Assembly (NCBI GenBank): GCA_024711325.1
Contig: JANJTC010000002.1
Coordinates: 248,001-312,000 of the forward strand
Direction: 5' to 3'
Length of the DNA stretch: 64,000 nucleotides
DNA from: Bacteriovoracaceae bacterium
Lineage (GTDB): Bacteria > Bdellovibrionota > Bacteriovoracia > Bacteriovoracales > Bacteriovoracaceae
Positions 12,820 to 52,052 of the stretch are shown piece after piece (the first letter of the stretch is position 1; each line of letters begins with the position of its first letter). The position numbers were made by a program, and so were the translations under genes. The notes under the pieces were generated by a model, which ran no database searches, was not told where the DNA came from, and saw only the letters and a program-made list of their open reading frames with translations.

Positions 12820-13638
12820 TTATCTTCCTCGTCTGTTGAAGGCACGATAAGAGAAATTAACTTCACTGGTGTTAAACCGTGTCTGAACCCTCCCGTAATC
12901 TTCTTGCATTCGCACGTGATAAGGGAGGCGATTATACATTGAGCTTTTAACATGAAAGCAATGTTCGGGACCATTTTTGTTTCTACGATAGTGAGCGTAG
13001 GTGGTCACAGGACAGCTTCTTTTGGAGTAGATGAAAATATCTGACCAGCTTTTTCGGGTCCTTGGAGCACTAGTGAATCTTCGGTCCATAATATATTCCT
13101 GTTCTCCTACCAATGTGTAAGGAGAAACATGAAACCACCAATGATAGTTATATCTTCTGATATAAGTATTGGTAAAGAACATGAAAACTTTTCTGGAAAT
13201 AAGCCCGTGCTTTTTCCATTCCTCAAAGGACCATACATGAGCGCGATCAGTGCATTCAGTATTTCTTTTATAGCTTCTATTCATTCCTTTAAAAATAGAA
13301 TTGGCCTCAGCGTAACTACTTAGCACGGTTGCATCTTGCTCTAACTCCGTTTCTGTGTTTGGTAATGATTCTTCGGGTAACGTTTCATCGGGAAGGGAGC
13401 TGATTGACTCAAGCCGGTTTTTTTTATCCACTTCTGCTTCAATCATTTGGCCTGTTTCAAAATCTTCTGTCGAGAATTCAGTTTGTGAAACTCTAATGAC
13501 ACGTCCGCTAATTAAATATAATAAATGATCCTGCCCCTTCATACCTGGTGACAATGAATGTATTTTATCGGTGATCCTTTCAGCATTGGCCAAACTGATG
13601 AGCGAAAAGAATATTATGAGTAAGAAAATATTTTTCAT
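12820..13638 (-). CDS. Secreted protein-glutamine deamidase-like protein (paralogue 2)
   Basis: 272 aa, clearly a duplicate of the protein encoded at 10295-11119. Sec signal (SLANA cleavage region), then the same order: Cys129 in ECTDRAHVW, His170 in WWFHVSPY and Asp185 in YIMDRRF. SCPVTTYAHYR, EHCFHVKSSMYNRLP and a final NYSYRAF-like tail (here NFSYRAF) are shared too. The linker (residues 82-105) is the least conserved and acidic. All three triad residues are kept in both copies, so neither looks degenerate. GGAGG precedes the ATG. Function as a protein deamidase is inferred from the triad pattern. Confidence 0.75.
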   Translation of the reverse strand: MKNIFLLIIFFSLISLANAERITDKIHSLSPGMKGQDHLLYLISGRVIRVSQTEFSTEDFETGQMIEAEVDKKNRLESISSLPDETLPEESLPNTETELEQDATVLSSYAEANSIFKGMNRSYKRNTECTDRAHVWSFEEWKKHGLISRKVFMFFTNTYIRRYNYHWWFHVSPYTLVGEQEYIMDRRFTSAPRTRKSWSDIFIYSKRSCPVTTYAHYRRNKNGPEHCFHVKSSMYNRLPYHVRMQEDYGRVQTRFNTSEVNFSYRAFNRRGR

Positions 13639-23258: not shown

Positions 23259-24125
23259 ATGAAAGATAAAAATTTAATGATTACAGGCGCCGCAGGTCAG
23301 CTAGGTTCTAAAGTTATGGAAATTCTTACTCAGAATTTTCAAGGTAAACTCATTGCAGGTTCCAGACATCCGGAAAAACTTAAAGTCTTCGAAAAATCAG
23401 GTGTTGAGTTACGGGAAATTGATTTTGATCAAATTGATACTCTAGAAAAGGGGTTCCTCAATGTTGATAAACTTCTTATTATCAGTACTGATTCATTGGC
23501 CGTTCCAGGCCTTAGATTAAAACAGCATCTGAATGCTATTCAAGCTGCCAAAGCGGCCGGCGTAAAGCATATTGTTTATACCTCCCTAACCGGGGCTGAA
23601 GCTTCTCCCATATTCTTTTCTCCTGACCATTATGGGACAGAAGAGGCAATAAAAGCTTCTGGTCTCGACTATACGATACTCCGACATAATTGGTATGTAG
23701 AAAATCTTCTTCCCTCCCTAGTTCCGGCCATCCAAGCAGGGAAGATTGAAACTTCAACAGCCGATGGTAAAGTGGCCTTTATCTCCCGTGATGATTGTGC
23801 TCGCATTGATGCATACATAATGATTTCGGATAAATTTAAAAATGTGACTATTGATGTGACAGGAGAGAAAGCCTATTCCTATTCAGAAATCTCCCGATAC
23901 TTATCTGAATGCGTGGGCCACCTAGTTGAGCATAAGAGAGTGAGTAGCTCAGATCTGCGGAATAATCTGGCATCTCAGCAATTTCCCTCTTTTGTCATAG
24001 ATCTTATTTCGACTTACGAAGAAGCAGTTGCAAAGGGTTATCAGGAAAAAACAAATCACTTCGTTCGGGAACTGACAGGGATTGCTCCTAAAAGCCTTTT
24101 TGATTATATAAAAGACATGCGATAA
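23259..24125 (+). CDS. NmrA-like NAD(P)-binding protein (QorB-like)
   Basis: 288 aa. Rossmann fold with MITGAAGQLGSKVMEIL (GxxGxxG), then HIVYTSLTGAEASP and EAIKASGLDYTILRHNWYVENL, the pattern of NmrA/QorB-type atypical short-chain dehydrogenases. It may reduce a quinone or act as a redox sensor. AGGAG precedes the ATG. Shares a transcript with the DODA-like gene and probably the LysR regulator's control. Confidence 0.88.
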   Translation: MKDKNLMITGAAGQLGSKVMEILTQNFQGKLIAGSRHPEKLKVFEKSGVELREIDFDQIDTLEKGFLNVDKLLIISTDSLAVPGLRLKQHLNAIQAAKAAGVKHIVYTSLTGAEASPIFFSPDHYGTEEAIKASGLDYTILRHNWYVENLLPSLVPAIQAGKIETSTADGKVAFISRDDCARIDAYIMISDKFKNVTIDVTGEKAYSYSEISRYLSECVGHLVEHKRVSSSDLRNNLASQQFPSFVIDLISTYEEAVAKGYQEKTNHFVRELTGIAPKSLFDYIKDMR

Positions 24126-43876: not shown

Positions 43877-45793
43877 ATGAAACCAATTCTTGTTGCTTTA
43901 TGTCTCATGCTTCTGTTCTCTGCCTGTACCAAAAAGACGGGCGATGAACAAAGCGCAGAACTTTCGGACCAGTTCGTAAACGGTGAATTGTCGGAAGTTG
44001 CTAAGGCCCGAGGCCTTAAACCTGAAGACCTTGTGTCAGCAGTTAAAACCTATAATCCAAGTGGTGCTCTGGACGAATACCTTGCCTTCTTTGGGACTGG
44101 TGTTTCAGGTCGTCTGGCCGTTGTAGGAATGCCATCAATGAAGATTCTCAAGTACGTTGCCGTCTTTTCTGCTGAACCATGGCAGGGGTTTGCTTTCGAT
44201 GATGAAAGTAAAGCTATTATTAAAGGCAGTGCTCGTGAAGAAATCGAATACAGCTTTGGTGATATGGGAACTCCCGCTCTCTCCCTGACAAATGGGACAC
44301 ATGACGGCAGAGCTCTGTTTGTTGCCGATGGGTCAAATGGACGAGTTGGTATTGTTGATCTTGCGGAATATGAAACAAAACAAATTGTCACTCATCCTTA
44401 TTTAAGAAACAGCAATGCTGATATCTCAGTCAGCGCTAATTCTGAATACGTAGCTCAAACAACTGCTAATCCTGAAAATTTTGTTGGTGCAGGTAACGAA
44501 AGCCGCGCCATCGCTGGTGCGAGTTTCTGGCGCTTCATTGAAAAAGAAAGAGAAGGTCATAAGCACTTTTTTATCGATCCATCGACTTCATTCACAGTGT
44601 TGTTGCCGAGTGGAAAACAATCTTCACCAGCAATGGGTAAGGGTGAAAGTGATGGTTTAATGCTTTCAATTTCTCAGGGCGCAACACCTTATCTTAACGT
44701 TGTTAATTGGAAAACAGCTGAAGGCCTGATTTCAACTAAAGCTTTCAAAGTTAGTGGTCACTTTACCATGGATGAGAAAACTGCTTTGGCATCAAAAGTT
44801 TTGGCCCGTCACGAGCTACCGGCAGGGGCCTACAAGGTCACAATCTCCGGTAATGGCAAATTTGCAGCAATCTCGAACAAAACCAGTTCTAATTTGCATC
44901 TTTTGGATTTAAAAGCATTGTCCGCTGGCACGGTTTCTCTGGCCAATATCGATGTTGGAGGAGCTTCAGTTGCTGCTGCTTTCACTGAAAAAAATCTTTA
45001 TGTGACTGTCCATAATCCTAATAAAGTCGTACGAATCGGTCTTTCTGATAAATCTGTAAAATCAAGTCATGCTTTGGATTTTCCTGCTGGAAGTATCATT
45101 ATCCCAGAGGCCGATACTAACAAAACTCAGGAGCGCTATGCGGTTGTAGTTAACCACTCGCCCTATGGAAGATTTACCAGAATCGGACCTCAAACAGGAT
45201 TGTCTGCTCACTTGCTTGATATTCGTGAAGACAAAATCAGCGGTATCTATGATGCTTCAATACCACAATCAACCCGTCTGGGCGGTGTTGTGATGGCGAC
45301 AACGATCAATAAACCGATCTTCCGCTATAAGATTGGGACTGATCCGAGAACAGGTTTGATTTCTTCTTATAAGACACCATCAGGTCAAGAGAAGATTGTG
45401 CGTGATGGAAAGCGTGTTCATGTTTACGCAACAGTTATCCGAAGTCACATTACTCCTGATTACATTGAAGTTGAGCAAGGTGACACAGTAAGTATCCACA
45501 TTACCAGTAATGAGCAGTCAAGAGATCAGACTCATGGTTTCACCATCGATTCATACAACGTCCACGGAAGTTGGGAACCGGGTAAAACCGCCACTGTTAC
45601 TTTTGTGGCCGATCGCTCAGGTGTCTTCCCATTCTATTGCACAGAATTTTGTTCTGCACTTCACTTAGAAATGCAAGGTTACTTACTGGTTAAACCAATG
45701 AGCGACAAGAACATCAGTCAGTCTGATAGTTTACAAAAATTACGTAATAATCCAAAAATGAAGAGTTTCTTCAACTACATAAAAGGTGAATAA
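43877..45793 (+). CDS. nosZ: NosZ-like lipoprotein keeping only the CuA site (split nitrous oxide reductase, subunit 1)
   Basis: 638 aa. Start at 43877 is set by AGAGGAAAG and the lipoprotein signal (MLLFSACTKK, Cys17). Residues 40-490 align with the seven-bladed NosZ propeller of the next gene, residues 505-606 with the cupredoxin domain. CuA ligands are all present: His553 (QTHGF), Cys588, Cys592, His596 and Met599 in YCTEFCSALHLEM; Glu590 stands where Trp gives a main-chain carbonyl. All seven CuZ histidines are lost: HH becomes Gly131-Thr132, the others Asn180, Tyr319, Ser364, Ser406 and Leu468. So it cannot build CuZ but can hold CuA. The reading frame is intact and the residues around lost sites still fit the fold. 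Likely partner: the CuZ-only subunit encoded 1 nt downstream. Confidence 0.92.
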   Translation: MKPILVALCLMLLFSACTKKTGDEQSAELSDQFVNGELSEVAKARGLKPEDLVSAVKTYNPSGALDEYLAFFGTGVSGRLAVVGMPSMKILKYVAVFSAEPWQGFAFDDESKAIIKGSAREEIEYSFGDMGTPALSLTNGTHDGRALFVADGSNGRVGIVDLAEYETKQIVTHPYLRNSNADISVSANSEYVAQTTANPENFVGAGNESRAIAGASFWRFIEKEREGHKHFFIDPSTSFTVLLPSGKQSSPAMGKGESDGLMLSISQGATPYLNVVNWKTAEGLISTKAFKVSGHFTMDEKTALASKVLARHELPAGAYKVTISGNGKFAAISNKTSSNLHLLDLKALSAGTVSLANIDVGGASVAAAFTEKNLYVTVHNPNKVVRIGLSDKSVKSSHALDFPAGSIIIPEADTNKTQERYAVVVNHSPYGRFTRIGPQTGLSAHLLDIREDKISGIYDASIPQSTRLGGVVMATTINKPIFRYKIGTDPRTGLISSYKTPSGQEKIVRDGKRVHVYATVIRSHITPDYIEVEQGDTVSIHITSNEQSRDQTHGFTIDSYNVHGSWEPGKTATVTFVADRSGVFPFYCTEFCSALHLEMQGYLLVKPMSDKNISQSDSLQKLRNNPKMKSFFNYIKGE

Positions 45794-45794
45794 C

Positions 45795-48113
45795 ATGAAA
45801 AATAGATATCTCACATTCATGGCCTTAGTCGGTTTAGTGGGATCAGCTTATGCTGACAGTAATTTAACTCAAAAAATTATGGATATCGCTAAGGAGAGAA
45901 AGCTCAAGCCTGATGATGTTTTAGCAGCTGCTCAAACCTTCACTCCAGCTGGAAAAGAAGATGAGTTTGTGTGTGTGAACTCAGGTGGCCAGGCGGCTTC
46001 GGCTATCCTTTACGGTGTTCCTTCAATGAGGATTTATAAGTATGTACCTACTGCTGCTCATGACCCGGCATCAGGGTATATGCATGATCTTCAGACCAGG
46101 GCCATGGTTAGAAAAGGACGGATGGTTGACTCTCAGGAATTATCCTGGGCCGACACCCACCACCCGGCCTTCTCAGAGACCAATGGTAAGTATGATGGTC
46201 GTTATGCCTTTTTGAATGATAAGGCCAATCCACGGATTTTTGTTATCGATCTTAAGGATTTTGAAACGAAGCAAGTCATCCATAACCCGATTTTTATGTC
46301 GGCCCACGGTGGAGCCTTCGCTACTCCTAATACTGAATATATCGTTGAAGGTGCTCAGTATGCTGCTCCTACTGATCGCAAGTATGTTCCTCTGAATCAA
46401 GATAATTATAATAAGCACTATCGTGGAGGAATTACGTTCCACAAGTTTGATAATGAGAAGGGTAAAATTGATTCTAAGAAATCTTTCACCGTTATTGCTC
46501 CTCCTTACTCGCAGGACTTAAGTGATGCTGGTAAGGGGGAAAGTTACGGTTATAGCTTTACCAACTCTTTTTGTTCTGAACGCTATATCGGTACAGGTCC
46601 TGATGGGAAACAGCCTCCATTTGAAGCAGGTTGTTCTGCTCGTGATACTGACTTCATGCATGTTGTTCATTGGCAAAAAGCAGAGGAGTTGTTCAAGAAG
46701 GGCAAATTCAAAATGGTTAACAACCACGCGGTTATTCCGATGGATGTTGCCGCTAAGGAAGGAGTTCTCTTTTTGATTCCGGAACCTAAGTCTCCTCACG
46801 GGAATGATGTTTCTCCAGATGGACGTTTCATCATTGTTGCCGGGAAACTGGATACACATGCTTCAGTGTATGACTTCCGTAAAATTAAAAAGTTAGTTGA
46901 GGAGAAGGATTTTGCCGGACATGATGAGTACGGGATACCTATCCTTGATCTTCAGAAATCTTTGCATGGTCAGGTCCAGGTTGGTCTGGGACCTCTTCAT
47001 ACCCAGTACGGCTCTGAGCCGGGTGTAGTGTACACTTCATTGTATCTGGATTCACAAGTCGTGAAATGGGACTATATCAACAAGAAAGTCCTGGATAAGG
47101 TTTCTGTTAACTATAACATTGGTCACCTTGTTTCCATGCAAGGGGATTCAGTTGAGCCAGCAGGTAAATATTTAATTGCACTTAACAAACTTGCAATCGA
47201 CAGGTTTGATCCAGTAGGTCCTTTGTTGCCTCAGAATCACCAGTTAATTGATACTTCTAAACCTAAGATGCGGGTCATTTATGATCTTCCTCTTCCATTG
47301 GGTGAGCCTCACTACACTGTCTGTATAGACAATAAGAAGCTTAATCCCATCACGACCTATCCAGTAGGTACTGATCCGGTACAGATGAAGCTTTCACCTG
47401 TGGCAACTTTTAAGGGTAAGGAAAAGGTCGTACGTAACGGTAAAAAAGTTGAAGTTTTTGGTACACTTTCACGCGATGGTGTAGTGCCTATGAATGTTGA
47501 TGTTACTCAAGGGGATGAAGTTATTTTCCACTTAACAAACATTGAGCAAGAGGAAGGCAAGCTGATTAAGTTTACTGTAAATGGAATGGGTGTACTTGGG
47601 GTTTTCACTCCGGGAAAAACATCCAGCTTAAGGTTTGTCGCTTCACAAAAAGGCAGTTACTCTTATAGTGCTGAGGATATCTCTTCTCCTTTTGGAGCTC
47701 AGGATTTTGGGCAGTTGAACGTTAAATTTGACCAGCAGTTTGAGAATCGACGTCAGGAAGCCCGGGCCCTTGAGTCAGAATATGTAGCGGCCCTCTTTAA
47801 ACTTCCAGAAGTTAGTAAAGTGGCAGCTACAGAGAAATTACATCCAGGAGCAGTTAAATTTGAAGAGTATGGATGTATCGGATGTCACATTCATGGAGAA
47901 GCAGAGACAGCTCCTGATTTGACTAACGTAACAGTCCGTCGTTCAAAAGATTGGATCAAGAAGTTTGTGGCCAATCCTGAGAACTACTACACTGATCCTA
48001 CGATTGCTCCTCTAGTTGCAAAATATGCGCTGGAAATGCCTAATCTTGAGGTTCCGCCTGAAGATATCGACCTGATCATTGAATATCTTGATCAGTTTAA
48101 GAGTAAAAAATAG
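45795..48113 (+). CDS. nosZ: NosZ with CuZ site only and a C-terminal cytochrome c (split nitrous oxide reductase, subunit 2)
   Basis: 772 aa, Sec signal (GLVGSAYA, no twin-arginine), as in clade II NosZ. All seven CuZ ligands are present: His122, His123 (THHPAF), His171 (AHGGAF), His335 (SPHGND), His402 (PLHTQY), His444 (IGHL) and His506 (GEPHY). The cupredoxin domain (545-645) is kept, but all CuA ligands are gone: Ile591, Ala626, Ser630, Gly634 and Asp637 replace His, Cys, Cys, His and Met. The C-terminal 110 residues form a monohaem cytochrome c (CIGCH, Cys694/Cys697/His698; likely axial Met748 in EMPN). It would reduce N2O to N2 at CuZ, but needs CuA from another polypeptide. Start at ATG 45795, one base after the upstream stop, with AAAGGTG before it. 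Confidence 0.95.
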   Translation: MKNRYLTFMALVGLVGSAYADSNLTQKIMDIAKERKLKPDDVLAAAQTFTPAGKEDEFVCVNSGGQAASAILYGVPSMRIYKYVPTAAHDPASGYMHDLQTRAMVRKGRMVDSQELSWADTHHPAFSETNGKYDGRYAFLNDKANPRIFVIDLKDFETKQVIHNPIFMSAHGGAFATPNTEYIVEGAQYAAPTDRKYVPLNQDNYNKHYRGGITFHKFDNEKGKIDSKKSFTVIAPPYSQDLSDAGKGESYGYSFTNSFCSERYIGTGPDGKQPPFEAGCSARDTDFMHVVHWQKAEELFKKGKFKMVNNHAVIPMDVAAKEGVLFLIPEPKSPHGNDVSPDGRFIIVAGKLDTHASVYDFRKIKKLVEEKDFAGHDEYGIPILDLQKSLHGQVQVGLGPLHTQYGSEPGVVYTSLYLDSQVVKWDYINKKVLDKVSVNYNIGHLVSMQGDSVEPAGKYLIALNKLAIDRFDPVGPLLPQNHQLIDTSKPKMRVIYDLPLPLGEPHYTVCIDNKKLNPITTYPVGTDPVQMKLSPVATFKGKEKVVRNGKKVEVFGTLSRDGVVPMNVDVTQGDEVIFHLTNIEQEEGKLIKFTVNGMGVLGVFTPGKTSSLRFVASQKGSYSYSAEDISSPFGAQDFGQLNVKFDQQFENRRQEARALESEYVAALFKLPEVSKVAATEKLHPGAVKFEEYGCIGCHIHGEAETAPDLTNVTVRRSKDWIKKFVANPENYYTDPTIAPLVAKYALEMPNLEVPPEDIDLIIEYLDQFKSKK

Positions 48114-48121
48114 AAGTATGT

Positions 48122-49396
48122 ATGAAACAGTTCCGGTTCTTAATTATTATCATCTTGTCATCATGGGCCCTCTCGGGGGCCTGTGATGACAGCATGAAAC
48201 CTGATCGACCAAGCGAAGGCTGGCACCAGGAAGTTAAGACCGGACCTTTACAAAAAGAAATCGATAAACTCCTCCCCAATTCAACTCTTAAGCTTGCCAA
48301 GGGTCTTCATCACGGACCTATTCATATTAAAACTCCAGGTGTAATAATCGAGGGAGTTCCGGGTGCCGTTATTACCGGCGATGAAATAGGTAGTGTCATT
48401 GTTATTGAGGCCAATGGAGTCACTATTAAAGGGATGACCATTAAGGGATCCGGTCTCTCTTATACTCAGGCCGATTCAGGGATTGGTTTAAGATCAGTCA
48501 ACAATATTAAACTTCTGGGTAATACGATTGAAGACTGCCTTTTTGGTATCGATGTCTATAGCGGGGATAATAACCTCATTCAGGATAATGTAATCTCTTC
48601 CAAAAATCTCGAAATAGGACTAAGAGGGGATGCAATTCGCCTATGGTCGGTTACAAATTCGAAAGTTTTAAACAATACCTGGAGTCATTCCCGGGATGTG
48701 GTGTCCTGGTATTCTCAAAAAATTGATTTTAAAGGGAATAAAGGAAGTGATTCCAGATACAGTATCCATAGCATGTACAGCAAGGGGTTAAAAATTCAGG
48801 ATAACGTGTTTAAACGAAACCAAGTTGGTATTTTTCTGATGTATGGAACTGACTTTATCATCAGCAATAATTACATCGAAAGGGCCCAGGGTGCGACAGG
48901 GATGGGAATAGGGCTAAAAGAAACTTCCAATATCATCGCTCAAAATAACACCATTAATTATTCCGCCGTAGGTGTGTTAGTGGATAATTCTCCTTTCAAC
49001 GCCGGCAGCAGAAGCTGGTTTTATGGGAACAAATTTGCCTTTAACGGTAAGGGTGTTGTTTTGAGCAATGATTTAGTTGGGGGCGAATTCAAAAAGAATA
49101 CATTCGTAGGTAACCTTCAGGATGTGGATACTGAGCATAGAAGAGGGAGCCAGAGTGAATGGGATAAGAATACCTGGGATAAGTATGTTGGATTCGATGA
49201 AGATCGAAATAACGTTGGTGATACTCCCTTCGTGATAAGAATTTATGGTGATTCACTCAGAAAATCGAATCCTAAATCATCACTCTTTTATGGCACTCCA
49301 CTTTTTACTCTGGTGGGAATCATTGAAGAGGTGGCAAATCTCGGTGAACCGATTATCGTTCTAACCGATAAAAACCCTAGCATTTTAAAGAATTAA
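48122..49396 (+). CDS. nosD: NosD, periplasmic copper-site maturation protein
   Basis: 424 aa. Signal (LIIIILSSWALSGAC; a Cys near the cleavage region suggests a possible lipoprotein). The rest is a parallel beta-helix with repeated NxI/NxV-type coils (NNIKLLGNTIEDC, NNLIQDNVI, FIISNNYIERA), the CASH/NosD carbohydrate-binding-like fold. NosD works with the NosFY ABC transporter to supply sulfide or copper for CuZ assembly. Eight nt after nosZ subunit 2. Confidence 0.93.
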   Translation: MKQFRFLIIIILSSWALSGACDDSMKPDRPSEGWHQEVKTGPLQKEIDKLLPNSTLKLAKGLHHGPIHIKTPGVIIEGVPGAVITGDEIGSVIVIEANGVTIKGMTIKGSGLSYTQADSGIGLRSVNNIKLLGNTIEDCLFGIDVYSGDNNLIQDNVISSKNLEIGLRGDAIRLWSVTNSKVLNNTWSHSRDVVSWYSQKIDFKGNKGSDSRYSIHSMYSKGLKIQDNVFKRNQVGIFLMYGTDFIISNNYIERAQGATGMGIGLKETSNIIAQNNTINYSAVGVLVDNSPFNAGSRSWFYGNKFAFNGKGVVLSNDLVGGEFKKNTFVGNLQDVDTEHRRGSQSEWDKNTWDKYVGFDEDRNNVGDTPFVIRIYGDSLRKSNPKSSLFYGTPLFTLVGIIEEVANLGEPIIVLTDKNPSILKN

Positions 49397-49398
49397 TT

Positions 49399-50262
49399 AT
49401 GATTAAAGTACAAAATGTCGTTAAAACTTTTAAAGCAGTGCCGGTTCTTAGGAATCTTAATCTGGAAATCAATCCCCGTGAGAGAGTGGCCTTAGTAGGA
49501 CAAAATGGTTGTGGTAAAACCACATTAATCAGATGTCTGCTGGGTCTGTACCATTTTGATGGGAACATTGATATTTTTGAATCAAACATCAAGAGTGAGC
49601 GTGAAGAGGCCTTGAGGAAAATCGCTTTTGTGCCTCAGACCCCACCTGCTTTAAAAAATACTGTAGGTGAAATTATAAAGCTTACTTCGGAGTTGTGTGG
49701 ATTTCCTGCTTCCGATATAGACCCTGTCGCTCGTCGACTTGGTTTGGACATTTCAAAATGCAGTTCGATTCCCTTTAAGAGTCTCTCGGGGGGAATGAAG
49801 CAGAAGTTACTTATCGCATGTGCATTGGCACGAAAACCTTTACTCCTCATTATGGACGAGCCTTCGGCCAATTTGGATCCACAGGCCCGAGCTGTCTTTT
49901 TTAAGCTACTTTCGGAATTACCTGTTGAGACTACCATGCTCCTAACTTCTCACCGGGTGGATGAGCTTGCGGGAATTGTTTCAAGGGTGATCGAGCTTGA
50001 TGCTGGAGTTATTACGATTGATGACATTGTGGAAAGTGGGGAATCAGATGCCTTAACCGGTGAACAAATTTGTGTACTAGAGTTAAAGCGCCTGCCTGAT
50101 TCTGTAAAAGGAGTCTTGCAGGAATGGTCTTTTAATCCTCAGGATAATGACGGGTTGAAATGGGAGGGGATTATTCCATCCGCTGACAGCTTTAGATTTC
50201 ATGCCACGCTTACACGCTGGTCTGGAATAATTGAGAGTGTCACTCTTAGGAGAAATAAATGA
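49399..50262 (+). CDS. nosF: NosF, ABC transporter ATPase for NosZ maturation
   Basis: 287 aa. Walker A GQNGCGKTT, signature LSGGMKQK, Walker B LLLIMDEPSAN and H-loop LLTSHRVDEL are complete. Starts 2 nt after nosD. Pairs with the membrane protein NosY (50647). The C-terminal 80 residues form an extra beta domain. The stop overlaps the nosL ATG (ATGA). Confidence 0.93.
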   Translation: MIKVQNVVKTFKAVPVLRNLNLEINPRERVALVGQNGCGKTTLIRCLLGLYHFDGNIDIFESNIKSEREEALRKIAFVPQTPPALKNTVGEIIKLTSELCGFPASDIDPVARRLGLDISKCSSIPFKSLSGGMKQKLLIACALARKPLLLIMDEPSANLDPQARAVFFKLLSELPVETTMLLTSHRVDELAGIVSRVIELDAGVITIDDIVESGESDALTGEQICVLELKRLPDSVKGVLQEWSFNPQDNDGLKWEGIIPSADSFRFHATLTRWSGIIESVTLRRNK

Positions 50263-50645
50263 AGAAACTAGTTTTGATGCTATTTTTATTAATTCTTACC
50301 GCTTGTCAGGAATCAGGAGAACTAAGGCCCCAAGAACCATTATGGGGACGTGAAGGCTGTGCCAGATGTAGAATGGTCTTAAGTGAAAAACGGTATGCCG
50401 TACAAAGAGTCCTATCAAATGGCGATATTCATTTTTATGATGATTTAAACTGTGCCTTACAACACAAGCATGATGAGGATAAGGGCACTCTTTATGTTCA
50501 TCCGCATGGTGATGAGAAGTGGGTTCTCGCAGAACAAGTAAAGTACCAATCTGGTTTAAGGACTCCCATGAATTCTGGATATGGTGCCGTCACTGAAGGT
50601 GGAGAAATCAGTTTCTCTGAAATTCAGGAAAAGTTTAAGGAATAG
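50259..50645 (+). CDS. nosL: NosL, copper chaperone lipoprotein
   Basis: 128 aa. Lipobox LILTACQES (Cys about 16). The copper motif is CARCRM (Cys-x-x-Cys-x-Met) at about 36-41. NosL binds Cu(I) and delivers it to the NosDFY machinery or apo-NosZ. Overlaps nosF by 4 nt and is 1 nt from nosY. Confidence 0.93.
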   Translation: MKKLVLMLFLLILTACQESGELRPQEPLWGREGCARCRMVLSEKRYAVQRVLSNGDIHFYDDLNCALQHKHDEDKGTLYVHPHGDEKWVLAEQVKYQSGLRTPMNSGYGAVTEGGEISFSEIQEKFKE

Positions 50646-50646
50646 A

Positions 50647-51474
50647 ATGAGACACGCAATATTATTAGCAATGCTTGAAATGAAGGAGACCTTCCGGGCA
50701 AAATGGTACCAGCTTTATGTTTTAACTGTTGCCACCATGATATCCATTTTCTTTTATTTTGGTCTTGCCGAATCCAGGGCCTTGGGATTTACCGGTCTGG
50801 GTCGACTTCTTTTAACATTGATTCAAATAAGTATCATCGTATTACCTATCTTTACGATGATGACCACGGTGAGGACTTTAGTGGGAGACCGGGAAGCAGG
50901 AGTTTGGGAATATAACTTATCAGTTCCTGTGAAGTTGTCTTCATTCTATTGGGGAAGAGGTCTTGGTCGCTTTTTATCACTGTTCTTGCCACTTGCCTTA
51001 GGAATGATTGCTGCTGGGATTGTGACAATGATCAAAGGGTATCCCGTTCCATGGCAGGTGATATTTTTATATACAGGCTTTATCGGGGCCAATTTGTTAT
51101 TCTTCACTGGGATTGCATTCCTTCTCTCTGTTCTTTCAAAGACCCAGGAGATGGCCCTTGGTCTTGGATTTATATTATGGCTTGCCTTTGAGGCCATGAT
51201 CGATGCCCTTCTTTTAGGGCTTTTACTCAAGCAGAGGGTCTTAGCAGAAATTATTCTTGGAGCAGCTTTTTTAAATCCTCTACAGTCTTTCCGAATGGCG
51301 GCCATCGGGCTTTTTGATCCGGAATTAACTGTTCTGGGTCCCATTGCCTATACCATCATCGAAAAAATTGGCCTGAGCAATCTTCTTGCATGGGCCATCT
51401 TATGGCCTTCATTTGCTGGCCTTGGACTTATGGCCTTGGGTTACTTTATCTTTAAAAAGAAGGATTTAATATGA
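50647..51474 (+). CDS. nosY: NosY, ABC transporter permease
   Basis: 275 aa with six hydrophobic segments, including ISIIVLPIFTMMTTVRTLVGDREAG-type elements (VRTLVGDREAG is the coupling region) and NPLQSFRMAAIGLFDPEL. This is the NosY/ABC-2 permease pattern. Start at 50647 follows GGAAT, directly after the nosL stop. Forms the NosDFY complex with NosF and NosD. Overlaps the next gene by 4 nt. Confidence 0.93.
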   Translation: MRHAILLAMLEMKETFRAKWYQLYVLTVATMISIFFYFGLAESRALGFTGLGRLLLTLIQISIIVLPIFTMMTTVRTLVGDREAGVWEYNLSVPVKLSSFYWGRGLGRFLSLFLPLALGMIAAGIVTMIKGYPVPWQVIFLYTGFIGANLLFFTGIAFLLSVLSKTQEMALGLGFILWLAFEAMIDALLLGLLLKQRVLAEIILGAAFLNPLQSFRMAAIGLFDPELTVLGPIAYTIIEKIGLSNLLAWAILWPSFAGLGLMALGYFIFKKKDLI

Positions 51475-52052
51475 ATCGGTTATTTTCAAAAACATTCATC
51501 CTAGCTGCCATTAGTGTTGTCTGTTATATCTTCGTATACACCCAGCCCATGTGGAATTTTAAATTCAAGGCCCCTCAGTACCCTATGGGTTTGGAGTTGG
51601 ATATTTTTATGACAGGAGCTAAGGGAGACGTTGCCGAAATTGATATCATTAATCACTATATTGGAATGCAAAAACTGGAAGATGCTGCAAAAAATGAAAA
51701 GGCCATGGCCCCTTTTGTCCTGATGGGTTTGTCAGTTTTATCTCTTGCTCATGGTTTGTTTCCACGGAAGAAAGTGCTCCATATACTCTCATTGGCCATC
51801 CTGGGTTTTCCGTTGGCATTCGTCACAATTTTTCAGCTTTGGCTTTATAAATTCGGTCATGATTTAAATCCTGCCGCCCCAGTAAGGCTTACTCCCTTTA
51901 CTCCAGTCATACTAGGAGAGGGAATCATTGGGCAGTTTACAACTTATGCTGTTCCGGGAAATGGATTTTATCTCAGCTGCTTTGCCGCACTCTGCGTGAT
52001 TATTTCGGTTTTTATTTCAAGGAAGAATGAAACAGTTAAAGAAACTTTTTAA
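51471..52052 (+). CDS. Membrane protein at the end of the nos operon
   Basis: 193 aa. Four hydrophobic segments (about 8-25, 80-98, 103-127 and 163-182) with an extracytoplasmic loop containing QYPMGLELDIFMTGAKGDV and IDIINHYIGMQKLE. ATGA overlap with nosY shows it is part of the nos operon. It has no obvious metal-binding motif. Similar membrane proteins occur at the end of some nos clusters without a defined role; I do not name it. Convergent overlap of 17 nt with the next gene. Confidence 0.7.
   Translation: MNRLFSKTFILAAISVVCYIFVYTQPMWNFKFKAPQYPMGLELDIFMTGAKGDVAEIDIINHYIGMQKLEDAAKNEKAMAPFVLMGLSVLSLAHGLFPRKKVLHILSLAILGFPLAFVTIFQLWLYKFGHDLNPAAPVRLTPFTPVILGEGIIGQFTTYAVPGNGFYLSCFAALCVIISVFISRKNETVKETF

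What the first reader, a model, noticed from the sequence alone, without database searches (positions are those of the whole stretch)
43877..48113. Split-site (heterodimeric) nitrous oxide reductase: two tandem NosZ paralogues with complementary loss of CuA and CuZ ligands
Seen in sequence: subunit 1 has every CuA side-chain ligand (His553, Cys588, Cys592, His596, Met599) and none of seven CuZ His (replaced by Gly131, Thr132, Asn180, Tyr319, Ser364, Ser406, Leu468). Subunit 2 has all seven CuZ His (122, 123, 171, 335, 402, 444, 506) and no CuA ligand (Ile591, Ala626, Ser630, Gly634, Asp637). The genes are 1 nt apart. Established: NosZ is a head-to-tail homodimer and electrons cross from CuA of one subunit to CuZ of the other. 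Inference: the duplicates have specialised so only a 1:1 heterodimer contains one working CuA-CuZ pair. I know of no described NosZ of this kind.
Basis: partly seen in the sequence, partly recalled or inferred. Interest (0 to 1): 0.97.

Follow-up and report, generated by a model that had tools for sequence, protein, structure and literature searches.

The report
Nitrous oxide reductase split across two chains
Two adjacent bacterial genes encode relatives of the enzyme that destroys the greenhouse gas nitrous oxide, one keeping only its electron-entry copper site and the other only its catalytic copper site, and because relatives carry the same matched pair, the two proteins are predicted to work only together as one lopsided enzyme with a single active site.

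Summary
SUB1 (43877-45793) has every CuA ligand and no CuZ His. The genome (93% complete) has no other NosZ match above 32 bits. Of 298 NosZ-like rows from three seeded, partly capped searches, 117 have both sites, 59 CuA only, 120 CuZ only and 2 are fragments; none is intermediate. On a 64-row tree without ligand columns, the CuA-only and the CuZ-only rows each form one clade inside clade II NosZ. Twenty-five CuA-only/CuZ-only couples share an exact contig length (about 0.15 expected). Partner distances correlate (Mantel r 0.94). Conservation is reciprocal: SUB1 cupredoxin 79% and SUB2 propeller 75%, against SUB1 propeller 46% and SUB2 cupredoxin 48%. Both genes are under purifying selection; both predicted folds are whole NosZ. 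Best explanation: an obligate heterodimer with one CuA-CuZ site, inferred, not modelled as a complex. A Bacteroidota/Cloacimonetes-type branch (58 of the 120 CuZ-only rows) showed no partner and could be CuA-free. No description was found in the open-access papers searched; the closest is a DPANN report of CuA-only NosZ-like proteins.

The parts
43877..45793 (+). SUB1: CuA-bearing, CuZ-less NosZ paralogue, 638 aa, predicted lipoprotein (lipobox LFSAC, by eye)
44054..45316 (+). SUB1 propeller (res 60-480), no CuZ His, fast-evolving but constrained
45389..45694 (+). SUB1 cupredoxin domain (res 505-606), slow-evolving
45533..45535 (+). SUB1 His553, CuA ligand
45638..45673 (+). SUB1 CuA loop Cys588-Met599 (CTEFCSALHLEM) with Phe591 and Leu597
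45795..48113 (+). SUB2: CuZ-bearing, CuA-less NosZ paralogue with C-terminal haem c, 772 aa
46158..46163 (+). SUB2 His122-His123, CuZ ligands
46305..46307 (+). SUB2 His171, CuZ ligand
46797..46799 (+). SUB2 His335, CuZ ligand
46998..47000 (+). SUB2 His402, CuZ ligand
47124..47126 (+). SUB2 His444, CuZ ligand
47310..47312 (+). SUB2 His506, CuZ ligand
47421..47726 (+). SUB2 cupredoxin domain (res 543-644), no CuA ligand
47844..48098 (+). SUB2 cytochrome c domain (res 684-768; CIGCH 694-698; Met748 invariant in the 66-row alignment A3)
48122..49396 (+). nosD, NosZ maturation protein
49399..50262 (+). nosF-like ABC ATPase (named by family and position)
50259..50645 (+). nosL-like protein (32% identical to an annotated NosL; no Pfam or NCBIfam match)
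50581..51474 (+). nosY-like ABC permease (named by family and position; true start probably further in)
51471..52052 (+). membrane protein; a look-alike ORF stands in the nos regions of L009 and L016 (by eye)

Best explanation
This is a two-gene nitrous oxide reductase in which one chain (SUB1) carries only the CuA site and its tandem neighbour (SUB2) carries only the CuZ site plus a haem c motif, and the two chains are predicted to form an obligate head-to-tail heterodimer with one working CuA-CuZ pair. Shown by sequence: the complementary ligands, the haem c motif, adjacency, and the same pairing in relatives. Inferred: the dimer keeps the canonical NosZ geometry, so SUB1's cupredoxin covers SUB2's propeller, with Phe591 and Leu597 of the CuA loop lining the N2O pocket. 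Electrons would enter through SUB2's haem c (or a soluble donor), pass to CuA of SUB1, cross to CuZ of SUB2, and reduce N2O there. The other half (SUB1 propeller against SUB2 cupredoxin) would be catalytically dead and kept as scaffold. It probably arose by duplication of a clade II NosZ and complementary loss, or from two clade II lineages; even accessory C-terminal domains are parted, with haem c on the CuA-less chain and a helical tail on the CuZ-less chain of 18 relatives.
For: Ligands in each chain. Census of 298 rows: 117 both sites, 59 CuA only, 120 CuZ only, 2 fragments; second-sphere Lys/Glu kept in 120 of 120 CuZ-only rows, the Glu lost in 59 of 59 CuA-only rows; Phe591 kept in 59 of 59 CuA-only and 117 of 117 both-site rows, in 5 of 120 CuZ-only rows. 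Each class one clade, 64 of 298 rows x 590 columns, ligand columns removed, SH-aLRT 100 each, quick method. 25 couples with identical longest-contig length, chance about 0.15; 24 of 44 CuA-only rows on contigs of 5 kb or more are so coupled. Both genes read whole, 1 nt apart, in the window, L007, L008, L009. Mantel r 0.94 over 27 couples, 0 of 5000 shuffles as high. Reciprocal conservation: CuA-only chain cupredoxin 79%, propeller 46%; CuZ-only chain 48% and 75%; 15 both-site rows 62% and 59%. Window vs L008 dN/dS: SUB1 0.043, SUB2 0.027, each lowest in its live domain. Partial correlations highest for SUB1 cupredoxin-SUB2 propeller (0.61) and SUB1 propeller-SUB2 cupredoxin (0.59), the domains that would pack across the interface. 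Whole NosZ fold in both single-chain models. No other NosZ match above 32 bits in the genome.
Against: No complex was modelled and no protein made. Partial correlations are exploratory: the two top pairs also share the same pace of evolution (slow-slow, fast-fast); under ranks SUB2 propeller-SUB2 cupredoxin scores 0.46 and 0.37 against 0.31 and 0.36 for SUB1 propeller-SUB2 cupredoxin; in the 18-couple subset SUB1 propeller-SUB2 propeller (0.33-0.48) rivals SUB1 cupredoxin-SUB2 propeller (0.38-0.47). Nearest relatives agree between partners in only 17 of 27 couples. 58 of 120 CuZ-only rows have no partner found. Contig-length couples are indirect evidence of linkage. Geometry and electron route are taken from canonical NosZ.
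Confidence: 0.82

Rival explanations
1. SUB2 is a working CuA-free NosZ (homodimer) that takes electrons straight from its haem c, and SUB1 is a separate CuA electron shuttle or regulator that docks only transiently.
For: SUB2 has its own haem c; 58 of 120 CuZ-only rows have no CuA partner found.
Against: SUB1 keeps a whole NosZ fold, including a constrained propeller that a shuttle would not need; the CuA loop with its Phe and Leu is kept in 59 of 59 CuA-only rows; partner distances correlate and the genes adjoin.
Confidence: 0.1
2. SUB1 is a decaying duplicate and SUB2 a damaged NosZ; the operon is on its way out.
For: Each lost a full metal site; in L010 the second gene turns into unlike sequence near the contig end.
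Against: Window vs L008 dN/dS 0.043 and 0.027; the pattern is shared by 59 and 120 rows in two clades, with no intermediates among the 298 rows.
Confidence: 0.02
3. The pair assembles as a larger or mixed complex (for example a heterotetramer), or acts on something other than N2O, rather than as a simple 1:1 N2O reductase.
For: Stoichiometry and substrate are not shown by sequence; no complex was modelled.
Against: CuZ His, second-sphere Lys/Glu, NosD, an ABC ATPase and permease and a NosL-like gene are kept, as for N2O reduction.
Confidence: 0.06

Closest known systems
Clade II (Sec-type) NosZ, TIGR04246
   Same: Fold, CuA and CuZ ligands taken over the pair, NosD and NosF/L/Y-like neighbours; SUB2 scores 685 bits (cut-off 625)
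   Different: Known members hold both sites in one chain and act as homodimers; here each chain has lost one site, and SUB1 scores 350 bits
cNosZ with C-terminal haem c (Wolinella type, recalled; rows P0042, P0043, P0045-P0047 here)
   Same: Haem c motif behind the cupredoxin domain, as in SUB2
   Different: Those rows keep CuA on the haem-bearing chain; SUB2 has none and would have to use CuA of SUB1
DPANN nosZ-like proteins (PMC10936187, passages read)
   Same: CuA-bearing NosZ-like proteins without CuZ; in 2 MAGs a neighbouring protein with five conserved His was suggested to take a CuZ-like role
   Different: Those score 20-58 bits against the authors' nosZ profile and branch between Cox2 and clade II; no paired dimer is proposed in the passages read. 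Here both chains are full-length NosZ with complete complementary sites. Their sequences were not compared with ours
Clade III lactonase-type L-NosZ (NF052460)
   Same: Distant homology
   Different: SUB1 104 and SUB2 121 bits against a cut-off of 700

Membership tests
Clade II NosZ (canonical) | TIGR04246 score of 625 bits or more | tested here: inconclusive
   SUB2 met (684.9), SUB1 not met (350.2)
Clade II NosZ (canonical) | Seven CuZ His in the chain | tested here: inconclusive
   SUB2 7 of 7; SUB1 0 of 7
Clade II NosZ (canonical) | CuA ligands in the same chain as CuZ | tested here: not met
   SUB1 has CuA only, SUB2 CuZ only
Clade II NosZ (canonical) | Propeller plus cupredoxin fold in NosZ arrangement | tested here: met
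Clade II NosZ (canonical) | nos cluster with NosD, NosF, NosY, NosL | tested here: met
   NosD 322 bits over cut-off 300; ABC ATPase and permease by family and place; NosL-like by 32% identity to one annotated NosL, no family match
Clade II NosZ (canonical) | Head-to-tail dimer with CuA about 10 Angstrom from the partner's CuZ (recalled) | not testable with these tools
   no multi-chain modelling or coordinates available
cNosZ (haem c fusion) | C-terminal cytochrome c domain | tested here: met
   PF00034 on SUB2; CxxCH and Met748 invariant in the 66 rows of A3
cNosZ (haem c fusion) | CuA on the haem-bearing chain | tested here: not met
L-NosZ (clade III) | NF052460 score of 700 bits or more | tested here: not met
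   104 and 121 bits

The most novel reading that the evidence does not exclude
A whole branch of NosZ has left the two-sites-per-chain homodimer for an asymmetric design: in Bacteriovoracaceae and deltaproteobacterial/Myxococcota-like relatives an obligate heterodimer with one active site, and in its Bacteroidota/Cloacimonetes-type branch a CuA-free N2O reductase fed directly by haem c or by a partner not yet recognised.
Probability: 0.25. Interest if true: 0.97.

Novelty: new variant of a known kind. Interest (0 to 1): 0.9.

Why it matters
NosZ is the main known biological sink of N2O, and its textbook form is a homodimer with both copper sites in each chain. A natural heterodimer with one site per chain would let each site be mutated, loaded and measured alone, making inter-subunit electron transfer directly testable. 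It would also change counts of N2O reducers: the CuA-only chain falls under NCBI's cut-off in 4 of 4 tested (SUB1, P0039, P0175, P0184), one carries the name cupredoxin domain-containing protein (P0184), and one published pipeline says it removes nosZ sequences without the correct CuZ and CuA residues (PMC9188126, passage read).

Tried and rejected
Shifted ligands: looked for His near the lost CuZ columns in SUB1 and for Cys/His/Met in SUB2's cupredoxin; none fits. FNR-box pattern with up to 2 mismatches: no site in the stretch upstream of SUB1. Single-origin test: holding both split clades together is not rejected (p-AU 0.27), but the free tree puts the CuA-only clade beside three tailed both-site rows (support 88, not starred), so one duplication or two source lineages both remain open. 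Tail test: a profile of the about 121-aa tail of 18 CuA-only rows hits the 108 of 117 both-site rows that have a tail, and 0 of 120 CuA-less rows. The type's name rests on two named rows, P0163 (Bacteroidetes) and P0155 (Cloacimonetes); 6 of its 58 rows were in the tree. Limits: the protein lists were capped (one search shows 120 of 7946 hits, one search shows 120 of 631; one search shows all 48), so class sizes are not frequencies. Fragments P0048 and P0116 were set apart; P0037, a 374-aa piece, is counted as CuZ-less. dS is about 1.1-1.4 for L008 and saturated in parts for L009, so those ratios are rough; against L007 (dS 0.17) dN/dS is 0.060 and 0.023, with 0.076 and 0.095 in the dead domains.

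Full report
What is there. Two tandem ORFs encode NosZ paralogues: SUB1 (43877-45793, 638 aa) and SUB2 (45795-48113, 772 aa), the second ATG one base after the first stop. HMM alignment to solved NosZ puts all seven CuZ His in SUB2 and the whole CuA loop in SUB1. Column by column SUB1 has no CuZ His, and none within six residues of those columns; SUB2 has no CuA ligand and no Cys in its cupredoxin domain. The cluster goes on with NosD, an ABC ATPase, a NosL-like protein, a permease and a membrane protein, and ORFs alike by eye stand in the same order in L009. The genome (93% complete) has no other NosZ match above 32 bits.

It is a family, not a freak. A census of 298 NosZ-like rows gave three discrete classes: 117 with CuA 5/5 and CuZ 7/7; 59 with CuA 5/5 and at most two CuZ His (47 with none, 8 with one, 4 with two); 120 with CuZ 7/7 and at most one residue matching a CuA ligand; and two fragments. 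The rows come from searches seeded by SUB1, SUB2 and P0039, two of the lists capped at 120, plus the two window genes and nine named or genome NosZ, so class sizes are not frequencies in nature. The second-sphere Lys and Glu of CuZ (named in PMC8301774, passages read) are kept in 120 of 120 CuA-less rows; the Glu is lost in 59 of 59 CuZ-less rows. The Phe next to CuA, on the proposed electron path to CuZ in PMC8301774, is kept in 59 of 59 CuZ-less and 117 of 117 both-site rows but 5 of 120 CuA-less rows. All 120 CuA-less rows have one or two CxxCH motifs and none of the 59 CuZ-less rows has any. A tree of 64 of these rows, ligand columns removed, makes each split class one clade inside clade II (SH-aLRT 100 each; quick method).

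They travel as pairs. Exact equality of longest-contig length couples 25 CuZ-less with 25 CuA-less rows; near-misses of 1-50 bases predict 0.15. In the window, L007, L008 and L009 both genes are read whole, one base apart; in L010 the second gene starts 2 bases on but turns into unlike sequence before the contig end. L007-L010 are titled Bacteriovoracaceae, phylum Bdellovibrionota. Distances among partners correlate at Mantel r 0.94 over 27 couples (0 of 5000 shuffles), 0.93 within the 18 window-like couples and 0.82 within the 9 others (2 of 5000); nearest relatives agree in 17 of 27.

Reciprocal constraint. Mean pairwise identity over the 27 couples: CuZ-less chain, propeller 46%, cupredoxin 79%; CuA-less chain, propeller 75%, cupredoxin 48%; 15 both-site NosZ 59% and 62%. 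Window against L008: dN/dS 0.043 (SUB1) and 0.027 (SUB2), lowest in each live domain (0.010 and 0.0095) and 0.048 and 0.035 in the dead ones; against L007 the dead domains give 0.076 and 0.095. The dead domains are kept for something. Holding the other domains fixed, the strongest partial correlations are SUB1 cupredoxin with SUB2 propeller (0.61) and SUB1 propeller with SUB2 cupredoxin (0.59), against -0.13 to 0.32 for the other four pairs. This mostly survives distance correction and cubic controls, but under ranks SUB2 propeller-SUB2 cupredoxin is stronger than or level with the second pair, and in the 18-couple subset SUB1 propeller-SUB2 propeller rivals the first. Shared pace of evolution could cause part of it.

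How it most likely works. Canonical NosZ is a head-to-tail homodimer in which CuA of one chain serves CuZ of the other (recalled; general NosZ passages). With SUB1 and SUB2 in those places one interface has CuA facing CuZ and the other has neither. Electrons would come through SUB2's haem c or another donor to SUB1's CuA, then to SUB2's CuZ. The complex and the route are inferred.

Origin. The about 121-aa C-terminal tail of 18 CuZ-less rows is homologous to the tails of 108 both-site NosZ (5 of them with haem behind it) and absent from the 120 CuA-less rows. So accessory domains were parted too, as expected of complementary loss from a tailed, haem-bearing ancestor, or of two source lineages; the AU test does not decide (p 0.27).

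Open. 58 CuA-less rows of a Bacteroidota/Cloacimonetes type (named from two rows; 42 with a lipobox) have no CuZ-less partner found. They may have an unrecognised partner or do without CuA. In the second CuA-less branch the lineage names rest on P0098 (Myxococcota, itself not coupled) and, on the CuZ-less side, P0184 (Deltaproteobacteria, not coupled). Ten literature searches found no split or heterodimeric NosZ (open-access library only). The nearest report is PMC10936187 (passages read). PMC11409646 (passages read) reports 15 MAGs with two nosZ, none within 45 genes of each other, so not this arrangement. PMC6530538, PMC3475470 and PMC11148229 were seen as passages and mention no such split in them.

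Noticed in passing
P0109-P0168 (protein ids), except P0110 and P0116: 58 Bacteroidota/Cloacimonetes-type NosZ rows keep all CuZ His but have no CuA set, carry one haem c motif, and 42 of 58 have a lipobox; no CuA-bearing partner was found.
   Followed up: partly
   Followed up: yes
L010:11884-12052: The CuZ-bearing partner gene starts 2 bases after SUB1 but turns into unlike sequence after about 46 codons, just before the contig end; insertion or assembly edge.
   Followed up: partly
L015:2143-2661: A separate ORF behind a both-site NosZ is homologous to the C-terminal helical tail that other NosZ carry fused (HMM E 1.2e-10).
   Followed up: partly
L076 and L077 (G358): One genome of the window's phylum carries two both-site NosZ with fused haem c motif on different contigs.
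   Followed up: no
window:29072-31437: Sigma-54 activator with GAF domain beside a ScdA/hemerythrin protein, a pairing typical of NO response (recalled).
   Followed up: no
window:37328-42953: By sequence look, an outer-membrane factor, a membrane-fusion protein and an RND pump of heavy-metal (Cus-like) type lie close upstream of the nos cluster.
   Followed up: no
window:1-64000: FNR-box-like pattern TTGATN4ATCAA with up to 2 mismatches occurs 105 times against 76 expected (0 of 100 shuffles as high), with one perfect copy at 23419 inside an ORF.
   Followed up: no
window:10295-11119 and 12820-13638: Two similar secreted proteins of unknown function flank a histidine kinase (by eye).
   Followed up: no
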